A stretch of 64,000 bases of DNA from Bacillus cereus (GTDB lineage Bacteria > Bacillota > Bacilli > Bacillales > Bacillaceae_G): positions 35,748 through 99,747 of the forward strand of contig NZ_NUOT01000027.1 of NCBI RefSeq assembly GCF_002584535.1. The letters run 5' to 3'. The position numbers and the translations under genes are program-made. Under the pieces are notes generated by a model. The model did no database searches. It was not told the origin of the DNA and worked only from the letters and a program-made list of their open reading frames with translations. Positions 1-54,439 of this stretch are shown here, piece after piece. Numbering within the stretch: position 1 is the stretch's first letter; each line of letters begins with the position of its first letter.

Positions 1-248
1 GATTGCTGAGGCGAGAGTTTCGCGTTACCACTCAGCTTCCTTATATTTCTCACAAAATATAAGCTTTGTAAGTCCTATCAGACTTTCATCCTTTTACCGG
101 AGATGAAACCGCCGCCCTCTACTCAGTTTTCCTTTCGTAAGCGATGCTCCAAGGTGATTTTCAATGATTCGATCGTTACCACCCTCACAGCCACGGGGCA
201 GCTCTCTGAAACTTTCGTAATCATCTACTTTTCCTCTTCCCTGCATAT
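1..248 (-). promoter_or_regulatory. T-box leader, Ile-type specifier, gene off left edge
   Basis: Read on the minus strand this has the parts of a tRNA-sensing T-box leader. The GAGAGCTG stem I motif lies around 196-204. A specifier region GAAAATCACCTTGGAGC follows at about 146-162. The T-box core GAGTGGTAACGCG is at about 21-33, followed by a GC-rich arm CTGAGGCGAG at the window edge that should belong to the terminator/antiterminator. Counting from GGAGC, the specifier codon is ATC at 156-158, which predicts sensing of uncharged tRNA-Ile. The regulated gene lies to the left of the window and is not visible; ileS, an ilv gene or a branched-chain transporter are the usual targets. The specifier position was judged by analogy with the other two T-boxes here. 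Confidence 0.85.
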
Positions 249-253
249 ACAAT

Positions 254-8143: not shown

Positions 8144-8682
8144 ATTTTTATCTCCTCTCTCTTCTATTCTTTCATACATTTCGTCCTTACTCGTATTGTT
8201 CTAGCCTGTTTCCTTTCTAATACAACCACTTCCTTTCAAAAATAAAAAAACGCCCCTACAAAAACGTAGGGACGATGAAAATATCGCGGTACCACCCTAG
8301 TTGTGAAGAACACTAAGAAACACCCGAAATAAAAAACGCCCCTACGAAAACGTAGGGACGATAAAATATCGCGGTACCACCCTAGTTATGAAGATACAAC
8401 AAGAATAATCCCTAAATAAAAAACGCCCCTACGTAAAAACGTAGGGACGATATATATCGCGGTACCACCCTAGTTGTGAAAAATTCTTCACCACTTTATT
8501 TGATAACGGTATACACTACCGTCTTTCATTTCTTCACAACGTGAGATTTATGAAAGATGCTCCAGGACGAACTTCATGAATAATCTATATACTGATTCAC
8601 ACCAACCATCAGCTCTCTGATATAGGGAGATTTCCATTACTTTACCCTTTCATTGCTCAAATATTATTTTCCGAATTGATTA
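8144..8682 (-). promoter_or_regulatory. Phe-type T-box leader with triplicated antiterminator/terminator
   Basis: On the minus strand a single stem I (GAGAGCTGATGG, GGTGTGAATC at about 8600-8618) is followed by the specifier stretch GAAGTTCGTCCTGGAGC. Counting from GGAGC, the codon is TTC (Phe), around 8565-8567. Three complete T-box core/terminator modules follow, with cores AGGGTGGTACCGCGAT at about 8456-8475, 8367-8387 and 8282-8302. Each is followed by its own GC-rich terminator ending in TTTTTT. RNA polymerase must pass three tRNA-gated terminators before the transporter gene. The spacing and specifier are visible; sensing of tRNA-Phe is family knowledge. Confidence 0.9.
8244..8475 (-). 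repeat. Three tandem copies of a T-box regulatory module
   Basis: Each unit holds the T-box core, the CGTCCCTACG/CGTAGGGGCG-type terminator and a T-run. Units occupy about 8418-8475, 8331-8387 and 8244-8302, with a period of 85-88 nt. Core and terminator arms are nearly identical, while the linkers between them differ, which indicates local duplication followed by drift outside the functional parts. Confidence 0.9.
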
Positions 8683-14065: not shown

Positions 14066-15628
14066 TTATAATTCTCTTTTTTCTTTTAAAAGTTTTTGAA
14101 ATTCTATTTCTAAATCTTCAGATGGTTCAATACTTAAGCGACTTAGTACTTCCGATATTTTTGTTTCAAGTAAAAGAAGCTGATCTTCTTTCGTATCTCG
14201 CGTCTTTTCCACTTGATTGAGTTTATATTGCTGATACGTTCCATCAAATAACTTAATCTCTTGATCATGAATTGCTAAAATTCTTGTAGCAATATTTTCA
14301 ATAAACCGGCGATCATGTGAGACAAAGATTACACTTCCTTCGTACTCTTTTAGAAGAGACTCTAACGCTTCAACAGCTTCCATATCGAGAAAGTTCGTCG
14401 GTTCATCTAACACTAAAGTATTAATATCACTTAAAAATAACTTCGTCAGCGCTACTTTCACTCGTTCACCGCCACTTAAAACCCTTACAGGCTTATAAAC
14501 ATCATCTCTGAAAAAATGCATTCTCGCAAGAACCGTTCGGATCAGTGTTTCATCCTGCTTGGAAGAAGACTGGACATTTTCGATAATTGATTTTTCCGTA
14601 TCTAATATGTTTAAATTTTGACTAAAATAACCAATTTTCATAGCTGGTGAAAGTCTAATGCCATACTCTTGATTCATAATTATTTTTACAAGTGTCGTTT
14701 TCCCACTTCCATTTGAGCCGATAATCGCTAATTTATCCCCACCTCGAATATGAAAACTCGTTTTGCTCCAAAGTACACGCTCACCAACTTTCCCTGTTAC
14801 ATCTTTTACTCGAAGAATAATCCGATTTTTAAACGTTTCCGCATTCGGCAGGTTCATCTTAAGCGGTGGAATTTCTTTTATTTTTTCTACCTTTTCAAGC
14901 TTTTCTAACCTCGTTTCAATGGCCGATGCTGTTTTTTGTAGCTTCTTTTGCTTTTTGGCAAAGTATGGCTTTGCTCCTGTAATTCTCGCTTCGGATTTAC
15001 TTACTTTTTTTGGCGTTTTTGTTGCTCTTTCAGCTTTTTTCTCTTTTAGTTTCATTGCTTCTTCTAGCTGCTTTTTCTTTTTTTCATATGTTTCATAAGC
15101 TAATTGTTCTTGATGAAGCTCTATTTCTTTTTGTTTTACATAATCACTATAGTTGCCTGTATACTCTTTTATCTTTCCTTCATTCAATTCCCATATAGTT
15201 GTACAAAGAGCATCTAAAAACGCACGGTCATGTGAAATAACAACAAATGCACCTTGCCACTTTTTCAATTTCTTCTCCAACCATTCGATATGTTCTGTAT
15301 CTAAATTTGTTGTCGGCTCATCTGCTAGTAAAAGTTCTGGGTCTTTCACAAAAACCTTTTGAATATATTCTTGCGTCACTTCACCACCACTTTTCGTTGT
15401 ATCCGTCCGTTTAAGTTGCGGTAAAAGTTCACATTTAGTACGTTGAATAACATTTCCTTCTTCTGGAGAAATTTCCCCAGCTAACATTTGAAATAACGTT
15501 GTTTTCCCGCTTCCATTTCTACCTACTAACCCAATTCGAGCATTTTGCTGAATTTGTAGTTGATCTATATCTAATAATAAACGATCCTTTACATAATACT
15601 TTATACAATTAGCTTCTAATAAAAACAT
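14066..15628 (-). CDS. ABC-F ribosomal protection protein, Vga-like
   Basis: A 520-residue soluble protein with two ATP-binding domains and no membrane segments. Walker A motifs are GRNGSGKTT (about residue 35) and GSNGSGKTT (about 305). Walker B/DEPT motifs are LLADEPTTNLD (first half) and TLVLDEPTNFLD (second half). A long charged interdomain linker and the short C-terminal tail LSRLSIEPSEDLE are present. From memory, the unusual first-half signature KSGGEVT, the linker and the tail follow staphylococcal Vga(A) closely. Vga factors displace lincosamides, streptogramin A and pleuromutilins from the ribosome. The start is the ATG at 15628, after AAGGAGATG. The preceding attenuator and the upstream hflX support a drug-response role. 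Confidence 0.85.
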   Translation of the reverse strand: MFLLEANCIKYYVKDRLLLDIDQLQIQQNARIGLVGRNGSGKTTLFQMLAGEISPEEGNVIQRTKCELLPQLKRTDTTKSGGEVTQEYIQKVFVKDPELLLADEPTTNLDTEHIEWLEKKLKKWQGAFVVISHDRAFLDALCTTIWELNEGKIKEYTGNYSDYVKQKEIELHQEQLAYETYEKKKKQLEEAMKLKEKKAERATKTPKKVSKSEARITGAKPYFAKKQKKLQKTASAIETRLEKLEKVEKIKEIPPLKMNLPNAETFKNRIILRVKDVTGKVGERVLWSKTSFHIRGGDKLAIIGSNGSGKTTLVKIIMNQEYGIRLSPAMKIGYFSQNLNILDTEKSIIENVQSSSKQDETLIRTVLARMHFFRDDVYKPVRVLSGGERVKVALTKLFLSDINTLVLDEPTNFLDMEAVEALESLLKEYEGSVIFVSHDRRFIENIATRILAIHDQEIKLFDGTYQQYKLNQVEKTRDTKEDQLLLLETKISEVLSRLSIEPSEDLEIEFQKLLKEKREL

Positions 15629-15907
15629 AGTAACATCTCCTTTTATCAAATGTAGGAGACAAAAAATGCCCCCTATATCCATTCAGAATAGGAGGCATCA
15701 ATCATTTATAGGTGCATACCAAAAGAGACTATCCCTTTTAGATCCAACTATAGAAGTCCCATCCTATTCTGAAAAACGCAAATTGAAGGCATCACAAATA
15801 ACAGCGTTATCGTATGCTAAAAAACCTTCAATTGTTTGCTTTCGTAAATAGGATTAGTACTTCATGTAATTGGGTCACCCTTCCGTTCTTTTCATTTCAT
15901 TCATGCT
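15629..15907 (-). promoter_or_regulatory. Attenuator leader of the ABC-F gene
   Basis: A ~280-nt leader with two mutually exclusive folds on the minus strand. The terminator pairs TGCCTCCTAT with ATAGGGGGCA (plus-strand 15688-15697 and 15667-15676) and is followed by a six-T run at 15661-15666. The antiterminator pairs CAGAATAGGA (15762-15771) with TCCTATTCTG (15684-15693), which overlaps the terminator arm. A further hairpin ATTGAAGG/CCTTCAAT lies upstream (15825-15834 with 15781-15790). This is the design of drug-responsive ABC-F leaders, in which ribosome stalling on a short upstream ORF selects the antiterminator. Confidence 0.85.
15875..15904 (-). CDS. Candidate leader peptide of the ABC-F attenuator
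   Basis: A nine-codon ORF (MNEMKRTEG) begins within about 3 nt of the predicted transcription start, so it would be nearly leaderless. An alternative is the three-codon ORF ATG AAG TAC TAA just downstream (about 15853-15864), which has GGAAGGGTGA about 9 nt upstream. One of the two is likely the sensor ORF. I cannot decide between them from sequence. Confidence 0.4.
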   Translation of the reverse strand: MNEMKRTEG

Positions 15908-15913
15908 ATTTTT

Positions 15914-15943
15914 AGTATAACTAAAAATTCCAAATAAAATCAA
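15914..15943 (-). promoter_or_regulatory. Promoter of the ABC-F leader
   Basis: A minus-strand TTGATT (15938-15943) and TATACT (15914-15919) are separated by 18 nt and lie immediately after the hflX stop codon. The ABC-F gene therefore has its own promoter in addition to any readthrough from hflX. Confidence 0.55.
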
Positions 15944-15956
15944 TGTCTTTTTCATT

Positions 15957-17216
15957 TTAAATGACAAAATGTTTATATTTTTCAAAATCACTCGTCTTAC
16001 ATTCAAGTGAAATTTTCGTACCTTCATTTTCATAACTCGTAGATATAACATGTGCATAATCATTGAAATAAGAGACCATTTTCCCTTGATCATACGGAAT
16101 TAACATCTCACACTTTATATACTCTTTGTATATGTGCGAACGAATCATTTCTACAAGTTCCTCAATCCCAATTTGTTGTTTTGCAGATAGATACACTCGA
16201 TCCTCCTGAGTTTTCGGGATTTCAACATCCATCATATCTGATTTGTTATACGCATAGATCGTTGGAATATTTTCAACACCAATTTGTTTTAAAGTTTGGT
16301 TTGTAATCTCAATCAATTGTTCATAATTTGGATTTGCATAATCCACTACATGAATCAATAAATCTGCCTCCGCTACTTCTTCTAATGTAGAACGGAATGC
16401 TTTCACAAGGTGGTGCGGTAATTTACTTACAAACCCAACTGTATCTGTTAATAAAAATGATTTATTATCTGGAAGTTCAATATTTCGCACTGACGTTTCC
16501 AGCGTCGCAAATAACATATCCTTTTCAAATACTTGTTTCTCGGTAGAACCGTTAAAGATCTCCAGCATCGTATTCATTATCGTTGACTTACCCGCATTTG
16601 TATATCCTACTAAGGAAACAACAGGAATTTCATTTTTCTTACGTTGTTTGCGCTGCGTTTGGCGCTGTGCGACAAGCGCTTCTAACTCTTTATTTAACGC
16701 TGCAATCTGTTCCTCAATTTTACGACGGTCTAATTCTAATTTCTTCTCACCGACACCTTTGTTTTTCGTACCAACGCCGCCGCTCTGTCTTCCTAAAGAT
16801 TCACGAAGACCGATTAAACGTGGCATCATATATTGCAGGTGTGCTACTTCAACTTGCAACTGTGCTTCTTTTGTCTTCGCACGCTGCGCAAAAATATCTA
16901 AAATTAAAATTGTACGATCAATGACTTTACAATCTAAATCAGCTTCTAAATTTCGAATTTGCGAAGGTGATAGTTCATCATTAAAGATCACCATGTTCGC
17001 ATCTGCTTCCTTCACAAAAGTAGAAACTTCTTCAATTTTCCCTTTTCCAATATAATGTGATGGATTCACGCGGTGCAAATTTTGTGTAACTCGCCCTACA
17101 ACTTCCACATCACACGCTTCCGTAAGATTTGTTAACTCCTCCATCGAATATTCAAAATCACTTTCATTATTTAAATTTACTCCAACTAATATCGCTTTTT
17201 GCACTAGTTCTTCCAT
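15957..17216 (-). CDS. hflX: HflX-type ribosome-splitting GTPase
   Basis: A 419-residue GTPase. The N-terminal HflX domain contains NPSHYIGKGKIEE and FNDELSPSQIRNLE, then RTILILDIFAQRA and the Gly-rich LGRQSGGVGTKNKGVGEKKLE before a coiled coil (about 160-195). The G domain has G1 GYTNAGKST (about residue 207), G3 DTVGF and G4 NKSD, and the protein ends in a short CTD. HflX splits stalled or stressed 70S ribosomes. A second HflX copy (HflXr) in Listeria gives macrolide/lincosamide resistance under attenuation control. The drug-type leader here and the adjacent Vga-like gene suggest that this is the resistance-type copy. The ribosome binding site GGAGG lies 9 nt before the ATG. Confidence 0.9.
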   Translation of the reverse strand: MEELVQKAILVGVNLNNESDFEYSMEELTNLTEACDVEVVGRVTQNLHRVNPSHYIGKGKIEEVSTFVKEADANMVIFNDELSPSQIRNLEADLDCKVIDRTILILDIFAQRAKTKEAQLQVEVAHLQYMMPRLIGLRESLGRQSGGVGTKNKGVGEKKLELDRRKIEEQIAALNKELEALVAQRQTQRKQRKKNEIPVVSLVGYTNAGKSTIMNTMLEIFNGSTEKQVFEKDMLFATLETSVRNIELPDNKSFLLTDTVGFVSKLPHHLVKAFRSTLEEVAEADLLIHVVDYANPNYEQLIEITNQTLKQIGVENIPTIYAYNKSDMMDVEIPKTQEDRVYLSAKQQIGIEELVEMIRSHIYKEYIKCEMLIPYDQGKMVSYFNDYAHVISTSYENEGTKISLECKTSDFEKYKHFVI

Positions 17217-17249
17217 ACATTAATTCCTCCATTTCGATTACGTAAAATA

Positions 17250-17277
17250 AAAAGCACAGGTCACTGCCTGTGCTTTT
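17250..17277 (-). terminator. Leader terminator 2, upstream of hflX
   Basis: An 11-bp perfect stem with a 6-nt loop and a T-run on the minus strand. It is located between the leader ORF and the hflX start, so it acts as an attenuator and not as a gene-end terminator. Confidence 0.85.
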
Positions 17278-17418
17278 TGCAAACGGATGAGAGTACACCA
17301 AATAAACAAAAGAAAGCATTGCTTTCAAATTGCTACATGGTCAATAAGTCCCAAATGATATACGTATTCAAGGAAGCATACACATATATCACATCATTCT
17401 ATTTATAAAGGCAAAACA

Positions 17419-17449
17419 AAAAGAGGGCGTATTCGTCCCTCCCTCTTTT
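17419..17449 (-). terminator. Leader terminator 1, upstream of hflX
   Basis: A 9-bp stem AAAAGAGGG/CCCTCTTTT followed on the minus strand by TTTTTGTTTTG. It lies about 90 nt downstream of the leader ORF stop. Confidence 0.75.
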
Positions 17450-17539
17450 CACATATCTGTTCAATAAAGGGTTCCTTTAAAATAGGCAGACCAATCCCGT
17501 TCACTCTGTACACAGACAGAGCCTTTGAGCGCTATTCAA

Positions 17540-17581
17540 TTATTGGCACAAAGTATTGAGACGTAATCTGATTAAAATCAA
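17540..17581 (-). CDS. Macrolide-sensor-like leader peptide (RLR motif) of hflX
   Basis: A TTG-initiated 13-codon ORF encoding MILIRLRLNTLCQ. The ribosome binding site GGAGG is 8 nt upstream of the TTG. The RLR core and the following xxTLxQ match the ErmD leader peptide as I remember it (MRLRFPTLNQ). Arg-x-Arg peptides are a known class on which macrolides stall ribosomes. The ORF sits about 27 nt after a well-formed promoter and upstream of two terminators, the expected place for an attenuation sensor. An overlapping ATG frame (from 17600, 22 codons) has no ribosome binding site. Confidence 0.8.
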   Translation of the reverse strand: MILIRLRLNTLCQ

Positions 17582-17614
17582 AGGAGACCCCTCCGTTCAT
17601 TAAAAGTTACATAA

Positions 17615-17643
17615 ATCTTAGCATAATTATGTAGTTTTCACAA
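17615..17643 (-). promoter_or_regulatory. Promoter of the hflX leader
   Basis: A minus-strand TTGTGA (17638-17643), a 17-nt spacer, and an extended -10 TGCTAAGAT with TAAGAT at 17615-17620. The predicted start is near 17608. Confidence 0.65.
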
Positions 17644-17738: not shown

Positions 17739-18539
17739 TTAATTTTGTACTTGTTCGCTTTCCTCTTGCATTTCCTTTTTCATTTCATGATAGTATGATG
17801 GTAATTCGATTCCATGCTCTATAAAATAATTTTCAATTAATGAAATGATCACTTTCAATGTTTTCACACGTGCATATAATTTATCGTTACTAGCGATAAT
17901 ATTCCAGCTTGCATTCGGTTTATCTGTTTTCTCAAACATTTCTTCCATTGCCCGGACATATTCATCCCACTTTTCACGATTGCGCCAATCTTCATCTGTA
18001 ATTTTCCATCTCTTCAGAGGATTTTTCTCCCGATCCTTAAATCGTGCCAGTTGTTCATCTTTACTAATATGATAGAAGAATTTTGCTACTATGTAATGAT
18101 CATCCGTTAATAATTTTTCAAAATCATTGATTTCATCGTATGCTCTCGTCCATTCTTCTTTTGTAGCAAAACCCTCTACACGCTCAACCAATACACGACC
18201 GTACCAAGAGCGATCAAAAATAGTAATTTGACCATACTGGGGAATTTTCCGCCAAAAGCGTTGCAAATAGTGGTAACGTTGTTCATGAGGAGCAGGCGCA
18301 CCAATTGGATTTACTTGGAATCCACGCGGATCAAGATGCTCAGTAATTCGTTTAATCGCTCCCCCTTTTCCGGCTGCATCCCAACCTTCCATGGCCATGA
18401 TAACAGCTATTTTTTCTTTTTGTAAAATTTGCTGTAGCGCTAATAAGCGCCTTTGATACTTCTCAAGTTTCTTATTATACTTTGATTTTGATTCCATTTT
18501 TTTCGTTAAATCTACTTGGGCAAGACGATCTTTTGTCAT
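17739..18539 (-). CDS. Polyphosphate kinase 2 (PPK2) family protein
   Basis: A 266-residue P-loop kinase. The Walker A-like motif GWDAAGKGGAI is at about residues 52-62, the lid/Walker B block FDRSWYGRVLVERV at about 109-122, and the conserved DPRGFQV and WRKIPQYG are also present. PPK2 enzymes transfer phosphate between inorganic polyphosphate and nucleotides. A single PPK2 domain of this length fits class I or III, but the direction and nucleotide cannot be read from sequence. The start follows AAGGAGG. It is divergent from the DUF1963 gene and upstream of the hflX promoter, with no clear terminator between. Confidence 0.85.
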   Translation of the reverse strand: MTKDRLAQVDLTKKMESKSKYNKKLEKYQRRLLALQQILQKEKIAVIMAMEGWDAAGKGGAIKRITEHLDPRGFQVNPIGAPAPHEQRYHYLQRFWRKIPQYGQITIFDRSWYGRVLVERVEGFATKEEWTRAYDEINDFEKLLTDDHYIVAKFFYHISKDEQLARFKDREKNPLKRWKITDEDWRNREKWDEYVRAMEEMFEKTDKPNASWNIIASNDKLYARVKTLKVIISLIENYFIEHGIELPSYYHEMKKEMQEESEQVQN

Positions 18540-40127: not shown

Positions 40128-40544
40128 ATGTATCCCCTTCCCTTAAACATCTTCCTTCTTTTTCCTTTTATTATACATTTAATTTTCCCTTTTTTCTAAT
40201 AATTAAGTCTTTAGATATGTAAACTACTAATATTTCGATTTATACTAAATTCAATTCATAAAATATACTATACAGAACTACACTGTATAATTGATATAGG
40301 GGCAATAAAACAACTATATAGAACCACTATCACCCCTTGCCCCCAATAGTTTCCAACATATTTCTAATCATCTACTTACACCGAACAATTCAATTATGCC
40401 AGTATACATAAACCATATAACCGAAAATAAATATACTTAATTTTCAAAATATTATTAAAGCACTTGATTTCCTAAAATATTTTAATTATTATAAAACAAA
40501 TGTTACCAAATAACTTCATAAACCAAACACTCTCGCCCAAAACG

Positions 40545-40724
40545 TGAGATAGAGGTTGCAGTGCTTATAAGTATTCTAGAGGAGACACAGAGATGTCAAT
40601 GAGTTTAGAAGAAAGGAAGTATTGCCGAAATTGATAAATTTCTCTGCATTTATCAATTGGGGCTGTTTTCGAATAGAAACAGAACTGTCATATATACAGA
40701 CGTGTATATATGAAGAGCTATCTA
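40545..40724 (+). promoter_or_regulatory. Lysine riboswitch (L-box)
   Basis: The conserved blocks of the L-box occur in order: GTGAGATAGAGGTTGCAG at the 5' side, AAGTATTC, GGAGACA, GATGTCAATGAGT, GAAAGGAAG, GCCGAAA, GGGGCTGTTTTCG, ACTGTCA and the closing GAGCTATC that pairs with GATAG. It lies about 230 nt upstream of lysC and is followed by terminators. Lysine binding should promote termination and so shut down aspartokinase synthesis. Confidence 0.9.
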
Positions 40725-40725
40725 C

Positions 40726-40763
40726 AAAAAAGAGATATCATGCTTTATATGATATTCTTTTTT
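40726..40763 (+). terminator. Riboswitch terminator 1
   Basis: AAGAGATATCAT and ATGATATTCTTTTTT around a GCTTTAT loop, directly after the L-box aptamer. Confidence 0.8.
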
Positions 40764-54080: not shown

Positions 54081-54439
54081 GCCCTTTTCCTCCTAAAATG
54101 TTTGGATGTAGTGAAAAGAAGCCAACAAAAAAAGCCCTTCTTTCCCAAAAAACTGGGACGAAAGGCTTTGGTTCCGCGGTACCACCCAAATTAGCAACAG
54201 AGGTTGCTCACTTATTCAGTACGGAGATTAGAGAAATCTCGATACTGTTCTTCTTGTAACGGCGAAGTTCCCGGCTAAGTCTAATTTCCTCTAAAGGATT
54301 TCGGTTAGCGACTCCAGGAGGTTCTTCATAACAGGCTTCGTATCAGGCTCACACCACCCCTGACTCGCTTTGACTACGTCCTACTACTACTCGTCCTTTC
54401 ACAGTCGTTTTGTTGTCACATCTCTGAAACATTTTATTA
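54081..54439 (-). promoter_or_regulatory. Asn T-box leader of asnA
   Basis: On the minus strand a long stem I contains GGGGTGGTGTGAGCC and the specifier stretch ATGAAGAACCTCCTGGAGTC. Counting from GGAG, the codon is AAC (Asn) at 54321-54323. The T-box core TTGGGTGGTACCGCGGAA is at about 54171-54188. The terminator AAAGCCTTTCGTCCCA/TGGGAAAGAAGGGCTTTTTTT lies at 54128-54169. The codon agrees with the downstream gene, which also supports the specifier counting used for the other two T-boxes. Confidence 0.95.

What the first reader, a model, noticed from the sequence alone, without database searches (positions are those of the whole stretch)
15629..17643. hflX and a Vga-like ABC-F gene, each behind its own attenuator: a two-step ribosome-rescue resistance locus
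Two factors that act on drug-stalled ribosomes by different means (70S splitting by HflX; drug displacement by ABC-F) are adjacent, same strand, each with a promoter, short ORF(s) and leader terminator(s). The mutually exclusive pairing in the ABC-F leader (CAGAATAGGA/TCCTATTCTG versus TGCCTCCTAT/ATAGGGGGCA) is directly visible. Separate leaders suggest that the two genes respond to different drugs or thresholds. HflXr and Vga-type attenuation are known separately; I do not know of a described tandem pair.
Basis: partly seen in the sequence, partly recalled or inferred. Interest (0 to 1): 0.85.

Follow-up and report, generated by a model that had tools for sequence, protein, structure and literature searches.

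The report
Two drug-sensing ribosome-rescue genes, side by side
Two genes that help bacteria cope with ribosome-blocking antibiotics sit next to each other, each with its own built-in drug sensor in its messenger RNA; both sensors are of known types, and what looks unusual is the pairing.

Summary
On the minus strand, hflX (17216-15957) and an ABC-F gene (15628-14066) follow each other, each with its own short leader ORF and leader terminator(s). The ABC-F is Vga-family (842.9 bits, cut-off 725). Its leader is a three-way switch (tripeptide uORF MKY, anti-antiterminator, antiterminator, terminator) plus a hairpin over the gene's ribosome-binding site; this layout is kept in the 36 leaders compared. 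The two uORF types differ, so different inducing drugs is a sound inference. A joint 'two-step' action is not shown; it was already proposed for the unlinked Listeria pair (PMC6310831). Among 18 more distant genomes with both genes, none was seen with them adjacent. Close kin seem not to be held, so conservation near home is untested. A possible second antiterminator in the hflXr leader is suggestive only: 23 of 23 in a targeted test, 16 of 41 (window not among them) in an unbiased one.

The parts
17615..17643 (-). hflXr promoter, TTGTGA-17-TAAGAT with TGC before the -10
   Evidence: Sequence; an extended -10 at 37-39 nt before the uORF in 21 of 23 leaders
17540..17581 (-). hflXr leader ORF MILIRLRLNTLCQ (TTG start, stop included), ribosome-binding site GGAGGGG just upstream; RLR motif at codons 5-7
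17558..17570 (-). Anti-antiterminator strand inside the RLR codons, pairs with 17498-17487
   Evidence: 12 of 12 pairs in the window and in Listeria L085, 6-11 of 12 in the other 21 leaders; duplex -11.2 against -7.5 +/- 2.3 in shuffles, so modest on its own
17487..17498 (-). Partner strand of the RLR codons
17504..17521 (-). Leader hairpin S; 17519-17510 complementary to 17273-17264 in T3
   Evidence: unbiased test does not single out the window
17419..17449 (-). T1, upstream terminator-like hairpin of the hflXr leader
   Evidence: -16.1 kcal/mol, z -3.8
17249..17278 (-). T3, gene-proximal terminator-like hairpin of the hflXr leader
   Evidence: -16.9 kcal/mol, z -4.7; a gene-proximal terminator-like hairpin in 41 of 62 HflXr loci and 0 of 7 canonical HflX loci
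15957..17216 (-). hflXr, HflX-family GTPase, 419 aa
15914..15943 (-). Probable ABC-F promoter, TTGATT-18-TATACT, starting 14 nt after the hflXr stop codon
   Evidence: Consensus match only
15854..15865 (-). ABC-F leader ORF MKY
   Evidence: A tripeptide uORF at the same place in all 36 leaders compared
15846..15854 (-). Anti-antiterminator strand, pairs with 15769-15761
   Evidence: 99.1% of cells paired, 36 leaders
15761..15773 (-). Switching strand: pairs upstream (anti-antiterminator) or, as 15773-15762, with 15693-15682 (antiterminator)
15682..15693 (-). 3' strand of the antiterminator, overlaps the terminator's 5' arm
   Evidence: 96.5% of cells paired, 36 leaders
15661..15697 (-). ABC-F leader terminator (15697-15667) and U tract
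   Evidence: -18.9 kcal/mol, z -4.5; 92.1% of cells paired
15636..15659 (-). Hairpin that covers the ABC-F ribosome-binding site
   Evidence: -7.8 kcal/mol, z -2.6; 94.9% of cells paired, 3 of 6 pairs with changes on both sides
14066..15628 (-). Vga-family ABC-F gene, 520 aa
   Evidence: NF000170 842.9 bits, cut-off 725; best solved chain 7nhl, 753 bits
14008..14045 (-). Terminator hairpin after the ABC-F gene
   Evidence: -17.3 kcal/mol, z -5.5, followed by a U run

Best explanation
Two intrinsic, drug-inducible ribosome-rescue genes stand in tandem, each under its own ribosome-mediated transcription attenuator. ABC-F: ribosomes normally finish the MKY uORF, the bases at and after its stop pair with 15769-15761, and the terminator 15697-15667 forms. 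A drug that freezes ribosomes at or just after initiation covers that strand; the 12-bp antiterminator forms instead and RNA polymerase reads into the gene. A further hairpin limits translation of leaky transcripts. hflXr: a macrolide- or lincosamide-type drug is expected to stall the ribosome at the RLR codons, covering the strand that otherwise pairs with 17498-17487, and so to favour read-through of T1 and T3. HflXr would then split blocked 70S ribosomes, and the ABC-F would free ribosomes from pleuromutilin, lincosamide and streptogramin A type drugs. Shown here: gene identities, uORFs, the exclusive pairings of the ABC-F leader and their conservation. Inferred from homologues: induction, drug spectrum and protein action. 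Least certain: the antitermination pairings of the hflXr leader.
For: ABC-F: NF000170 above cut-off; nearest solved chains VgaA(LC) 7nhl and VgaL 7nhn. Leader: 36 leaders with tripeptide uORF and paired cells of 92-99% in the switch helices against 42-56% when slid; the same layout is described for vmlR with uORF MIN (PMC9226507 section 18). HflXr: tree split 100/100, 57% identity to Listeria HflXr against 41% to Listeria HflX, longer loop. RxR uORF with ribosome-binding site in 24 of 34 HflXr loci against about 2.9 expected, and 1 of 7 canonical loci. Gene-proximal terminator-like hairpin in 41 of 62 HflXr loci, 0 of 7 canonical. Listeria hflXr: RLR leader, attenuation and protection against erythromycin and lincomycin shown by experiment (PMC6310831).
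Against: No expression or drug data for this locus. 28 of 62 HflXr loci show no RxR uORF by this search (24 of 34 and 10 of 28 have one). The RLR-strand pairing is no better than shuffles in several relatives (L054, L055, L062, L066) and only 6-11 of 12 pairs outside the window and Listeria. T1 antitermination is weakly supported and absent in L067 and L081. The S-T3 complementarity does not pass an unbiased test in the window (12 of 40 shuffles as good). The tree tool flags long branches.
Confidence: 0.8

Rival explanations
1. The adjacency is accidental: two independently inherited resistance genes that happen to be neighbours in this lineage, each working alone, with no regulatory link.
For: None of 18 other genomes with both genes was seen to have them adjacent; 15 have them on different contigs and 3 have them 12.9-17.5 kb apart. 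HflXr neighbours in 18 genomes share little with the window. The ABC-F has its own promoter-like site and full attenuator.
Against: No terminator was seen between the genes, though the scan misses long-loop hairpins; 3 of 18 within 20 kb is more than a rough 1% per genome would give, but two of the three look related.
Confidence: 0.45
2. A serial unit: hflXr transcripts run on into the ABC-F leader, whose attenuator decides whether they end there, so ABC-F expression depends on both stall sensors.
For: The ABC-F promoter-like site starts 14 nt after the hflXr stop; the only strong terminators seen are the leader ones and the one after the ABC-F gene.
Against: No transcript data; a leader terminator could simply double as the end of hflXr mRNA without any regulatory meaning.
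Confidence: 0.3
3. The hflX is the ordinary housekeeping copy and its long leader has nothing to do with antibiotics.
For: NCBIfam names it only GTPase HflX; the window's genome is not held, so a second copy could not be looked for.
Against: Grouping with Lmo0762 against Lmo1296, identity 57% against 41%, longer loop, RLR leader ORF.
Confidence: 0.03

Closest known systems
Listeria monocytogenes rli80-hflXr (lmo0762), PMC6310831 (parts 1-3 of 5 read)
   Same: HflXr protein clade; short leader ORF with RLR; RLR codons pair with a downstream strand (12 of 12 in both); terminator in the leader
   Different: Here two terminator-like hairpins (T1, T3) in the leader and a Vga-family ABC-F gene next door; in Listeria the nearest ABC-F (42%) lies about 175 kb away in the record searched
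Bacillus subtilis vmlR leader, PMC9226507 (section 18 read)
   Same: Tripeptide uORF, anti-antiterminator, antiterminator, terminator and a hairpin over the gene's ribosome-binding site
   Different: Sequence of the uORF (MKY here, MIN there) and ABC-F subfamily (Vga type here)
Staphylococcal Vga(A)/Vga(C) ABC-F genes
   Same: 67-69% protein identity to plasmid copies; same leader layout with uORF MIN in L006, L007, L008
   Different: Stands next to hflXr; no sign here of a plasmid. The paper on vga(A) attenuation (Vimberg 2020) was not held; seen only in a reference list

Membership tests
HflXr | Groups with Lmo0762, not with Lmo1296/canonical HflX | tested here: met
   Split with 100/100 support, 52 rows against 8; long branches flagged there
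HflXr | Longer loop at the peptidyl-transferase centre (as told in PMC12493154, passages) | tested here: met
   Two residues longer than in the 6 canonical rows shown, as long as in Lmo0762 (read by eye)
HflXr | Leader ORF with RLR under transcription attenuation | tested here: met
   MILIRLRLNTLCQ and leader terminators found; attenuation itself not tested
HflXr | Second, canonical hflX in the same genome | not testable with these tools
   No genome held for the window
HflXr | Protects against macrolides/lincosamides by ribosome splitting | not testable with these tools
   Needs experiment
Vga-family (ARE1) ABC-F | Scores above the curated cut-off of the Vga-family model | tested here: met
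   842.9 bits, cut-off 725
Vga-family (ARE1) ABC-F | Protects against pleuromutilins, lincosamides, streptogramin A | not testable with these tools
   Needs experiment
VmlR/Vga-type attenuator | Tripeptide uORF overlapping an anti-antiterminator | tested here: met
   MKY, 36 of 36 leaders compared have a tripeptide uORF; helix 99.1% paired
VmlR/Vga-type attenuator | Mutually exclusive antiterminator and terminator | tested here: met
   96.5% and 92.1% of cells paired
VmlR/Vga-type attenuator | Hairpin over the gene's ribosome-binding site | tested here: met
   94.9% of cells paired, changes on both sides in 3 of 6 pairs
VmlR/Vga-type attenuator | NusG-dependent pausing | not tested
   Needs transcription assays
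hflXr-abcF tandem as a conserved unit | Adjacency kept in genomes that have both genes | tested here: not met
   Seen in 0 of 18 more distant genomes, 15 of them with the genes on different contigs of drafts; not testable in the window's own species group

The most novel reading that the evidence does not exclude
A two-input resistance unit: a peptide-specific RLR stall sensor and a generic initiation-stall tripeptide sensor stand in series on one strand without a terminator between them, so that the ABC-F attenuator is also the conditional end of the hflXr mRNA; in addition, one RLR stall would release antiterminator strands against two successive terminators (T1 and T3) of the hflXr leader.
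Probability: 0.2. Interest if true: 0.55.

Novelty: new variant of a known kind. Interest (0 to 1): 0.4.

Why it matters
HflXr and ABC-F factors act on drug-blocked ribosomes by different means, and in Listeria removing one uncovers the lincomycin effect of the other (PMC6310831). A natural side-by-side pair with two different stall sensors would let one ask directly which drugs call up which factor, and whether the two work on the same ribosomes.

Tried and rejected
Considered and rejected: ordinary hflX; a known Rfam element at either leader (one search lists 3 T-boxes and a lysine riboswitch elsewhere, at gathering scores); an anti-phage function (ABC-F hits are matches to ATPase models such as mad3, 146.7 bits; HflX hits weak).

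Weak or against the reading: the promoter scan is near its shuffle level and the terminator scan too (3 found, 2.3 expected; it also misses the ABC-F terminator and T1, whose loops are too long for it). Antitermination of T1 is about 1 to 3 sd better than shuffles in most T1-bearing leaders and nil in L067 and L081. S-T3: swapping arms between species does not separate native from foreign pairs (214 of 2000 permutations as high). An ungapped test passes in 15 of 16 leaders of the first set and 0 of 7 of the second at 5%; allowing bulges, 23 of 23 pass at 1% of S shuffles. Those 23 were chosen by a terminator pattern that already asks for CACAG-like arms and by having a uORF; L111 has such a terminator but no uORF and was not in that test, and L057, L058 and L062 have other gene-proximal hairpins without the complementarity. 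In a later, unbiased test of all 62 HflXr loci, 41 have a gene-proximal terminator and 16 of these 41 pass at 5%; the window does not (12 of 40).

Limits: the Vga leaders compared are the better-matching part (9 loci and 30 of 75 order-sample genomes; with the window and after dropping 4 duplicates, 36). The uORF search looked for tripeptides as such; the open listing shows the same ORFs. Of the 24 RxR uORFs, one (L065) looks accidental.
Full report
What is there. On the minus strand the order is a PPK2-like polyphosphate kinase gene (18539-17739), hflX (17216-15957) and an ABC-F gene (15628-14066). The 522 bases before hflX and the 328 bases between hflX and the ABC-F gene are leaders. A terminator hairpin follows the ABC-F gene (14045-14008, -17.3 kcal/mol, z -5.5). 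I saw none between the hflX stop and the ABC-F promoter-like site, where an A+T-only hairpin without a U tract folds at z -1.8, nor between the kinase gene and the hflX promoter (z +0.6); the pattern scan agrees but misses long-loop hairpins.

The ABC-F gene and its leader. The protein scores 842.9 bits with the Vga-family model (cut-off 725). The closest solved chain is 7nhl (753 bits), then 7nhn, Lmo0919 (408.7 bits); PMC8196190 gives these as VgaA(LC) and VgaL (passages). The leader holds a tripeptide uORF, MKY (15865-15854), behind GGAAGGGTG. The bases 15854-15846 pair with 15769-15761; 15773-15762 pairs perfectly with 15693-15682; and that strand overlaps the 5' arm of the terminator 15697-15667. 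A fourth hairpin (15659-15636) covers the gene's ribosome-binding site. Energies lie well below shuffles: terminator z -4.5, antiterminator segment z -4.9, anti-antiterminator segment z -4.9, whole leader z -5.5 with the repressed form as minimum.

Conservation of that leader. I compared 36 distinct leaders of related ABC-F genes (67-100% protein identity). All 36 have a tripeptide uORF 227-270 bases before the gene, aligned in one column block. Standard pairs are kept in 99.1% (anti-antiterminator), 96.5% (antiterminator), 92.1% (terminator), 94.9% (ribosome-binding-site hairpin) and 83.9% (a stem between uORF and antiterminator) of cells, against 42-56% over the whole structure when partners are slid. 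Changes on both sides occur mainly in the last two of these; the anti-antiterminator and antiterminator barely vary, so they speak for constraint rather than for covariation. This is the layout described for B. subtilis vmlR, uORF MIN (PMC9226507, section 18 read); published consensus uORFs are MK[L/Q] for VmlR2 and MR[I/M] for CplR (PMC10201436, passages).

The hflX gene is HflXr. In a tree of 60 rows (44 different) the window protein lies with Listeria Lmo0762 and 50 other rows, and Lmo1296 with 7 canonical HflX rows on the other side of a branch with 100/100 support; the program flags several long branches. That the two Listeria loci are Lmo0762 and Lmo1296 is inferred from their uORF and from the two-copy account in PMC6310831; the record carries no annotation there. 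Identity is 57% to the first and 41% to the second. The best solved chain is 8a57 (489 bits); that this is the Listeria HflXr structure is recalled. In the alignment shown (8 HflXr and 6 canonical rows) the loop after the PRL-G motif is two residues longer than in canonical HflX and as long as in Lmo0762, and about seven residues are inserted in the GTPase domain. The longer loop as a mark of HflXr is from passages of PMC12493154.

The hflXr leader. It has an extended -10 promoter (17643-17615) and a TTG-started ORF, MILIRLRLNTLCQ (17581-17540). RLR is the macrolide-stalling signature also present in the 14-aa ORF of the Listeria leader (PMC6310831); our Listeria locus shows MRYIRLRFPKNLCN. 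RxR-type ORFs with a ribosome-binding site within 500 bases occur in 24 of 34 HflXr loci, window and Listeria included (about 2.9 expected from shuffles; one looks accidental), and in 1 of 7 canonical loci (0.6 expected); in a further 28 HflXr loci, 10 have one. The RLR codons pair with 17498-17487, 12 of 12 in the window and Listeria, 6-11 of 12 in the other 21 leaders; by duplex energy this is 1.6 sd better than shuffles in the window and not better in four relatives. A ribosome stalled with codon 6 in the P site would cover that strand; this is inference from footprint size.

Terminators of the hflXr leader. T1 (17449-17419) and T3 (17278-17249) both fold well. Over all 62 HflXr loci, 41 have a terminator-like hairpin within 130 bases of the gene, against 0 of 7 canonical HflX loci, in line with attenuation. 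In the window T3's 5' arm is complementary to leader hairpin S over 10 bases. In 23 leaders chosen for a T3 of similar sequence and a uORF, the duplex of S with T3 beats at least 297 of 300 shuffles of S. But in an unbiased test of the 41 terminator-bearing loci, 16 pass at 5% and the window does not (12 of 40 shuffles as good), and swapping arms between species makes no clear difference. I read S as a possible antiterminator for T3, no more. How a stalled ribosome would free it is not settled.

Adjacency elsewhere. The closest relatives found are 85% (ABC-F) and 78% (HflXr) identical, so genomes of the window's own species group seem not to be held. In the order sample 75 of 397 genomes have the ABC-F (E <= 1e-150), 54 of 397 HflXr (E <= 1e-115) and 13 both. 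In the class sample 49 of 398 (E <= 1e-110) and 63 of 398, and 6 both, two of these already counted. With G003 that is 18 genomes. In none did I see the genes adjacent: 3 have them 12.9-17.5 kb apart on one contig (G046, G156, G317), 15 on different contigs of drafts. Twenty stretches around HflXr or both genes from 18 genomes share only 3 other matches with window genes.

Mechanism and what is known. Best reading: two separately induced rescue genes, hflXr answering to macrolide/lincosamide-type stalls on a specific peptide, the ABC-F to drugs that freeze ribosomes near initiation. Duval and co-workers showed that Listeria hflXr protects against erythromycin and, without lmo0919, lincomycin; named B. 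cereus and B. anthracis among carriers of the subfamily; and proposed that HflXr and the ABC-F act in concert (PMC6310831, parts 1-3 of 5 read). So the parts, the type of regulation and the two-step idea are in print for an unlinked pair. I did not see a tandem hflXr-abcF locus described in the listings of my searches of the open library; most subscription papers are not in it, and the papers on HflXr structure and on vga(A) attenuation were not held.

Verdict. Observation confirmed; interpretation partly supported. Each leader is a member of a known kind; the tandem, the lack of a visible terminator between the genes and the two-terminator hflXr leader make it a variant worth testing. Interest 0.4.

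Noticed in passing
window 4-250, 8440-8662, 54151-54411 (minus); 40542-40728 (plus): Three T-box leaders and a lysine riboswitch at Rfam gathering scores.
   Followed up: no
window 17739-18539, minus: A PPK2-like polyphosphate kinase gene directly upstream of hflXr on the same strand; it matches TIGR03708 and PPK2 models below their cut-offs, and no terminator was seen before the hflXr promoter.
   Followed up: no
L084 4001-5254 (Lysinibacillus fusiformis plasmid pMGMM7): An HflXr gene (66% identical) on a 245-kb plasmid, grouping with HflXr, without an RxR leader ORF within 500 bases.
   Followed up: partly
L006 (Streptomyces mutabilis contig of 4228 bases): A staphylococcal-type vga gene with leader uORF MIN, nearly the same leader as in L007 from Staphylococcus pettenkoferi; possibly a stray contig in that assembly.
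   Followed up: no
L090-L094 (G046, G156, G317): HflXr and the Vga-type ABC-F gene lie 12.9-17.5 kb apart on one contig in three of 18 genomes with both.
   Followed up: partly
L001 11294-12652 and L009 5302-6660: A second ABC-F gene, about 41% identical, a few kilobases from the Vga-type gene.
   Followed up: no
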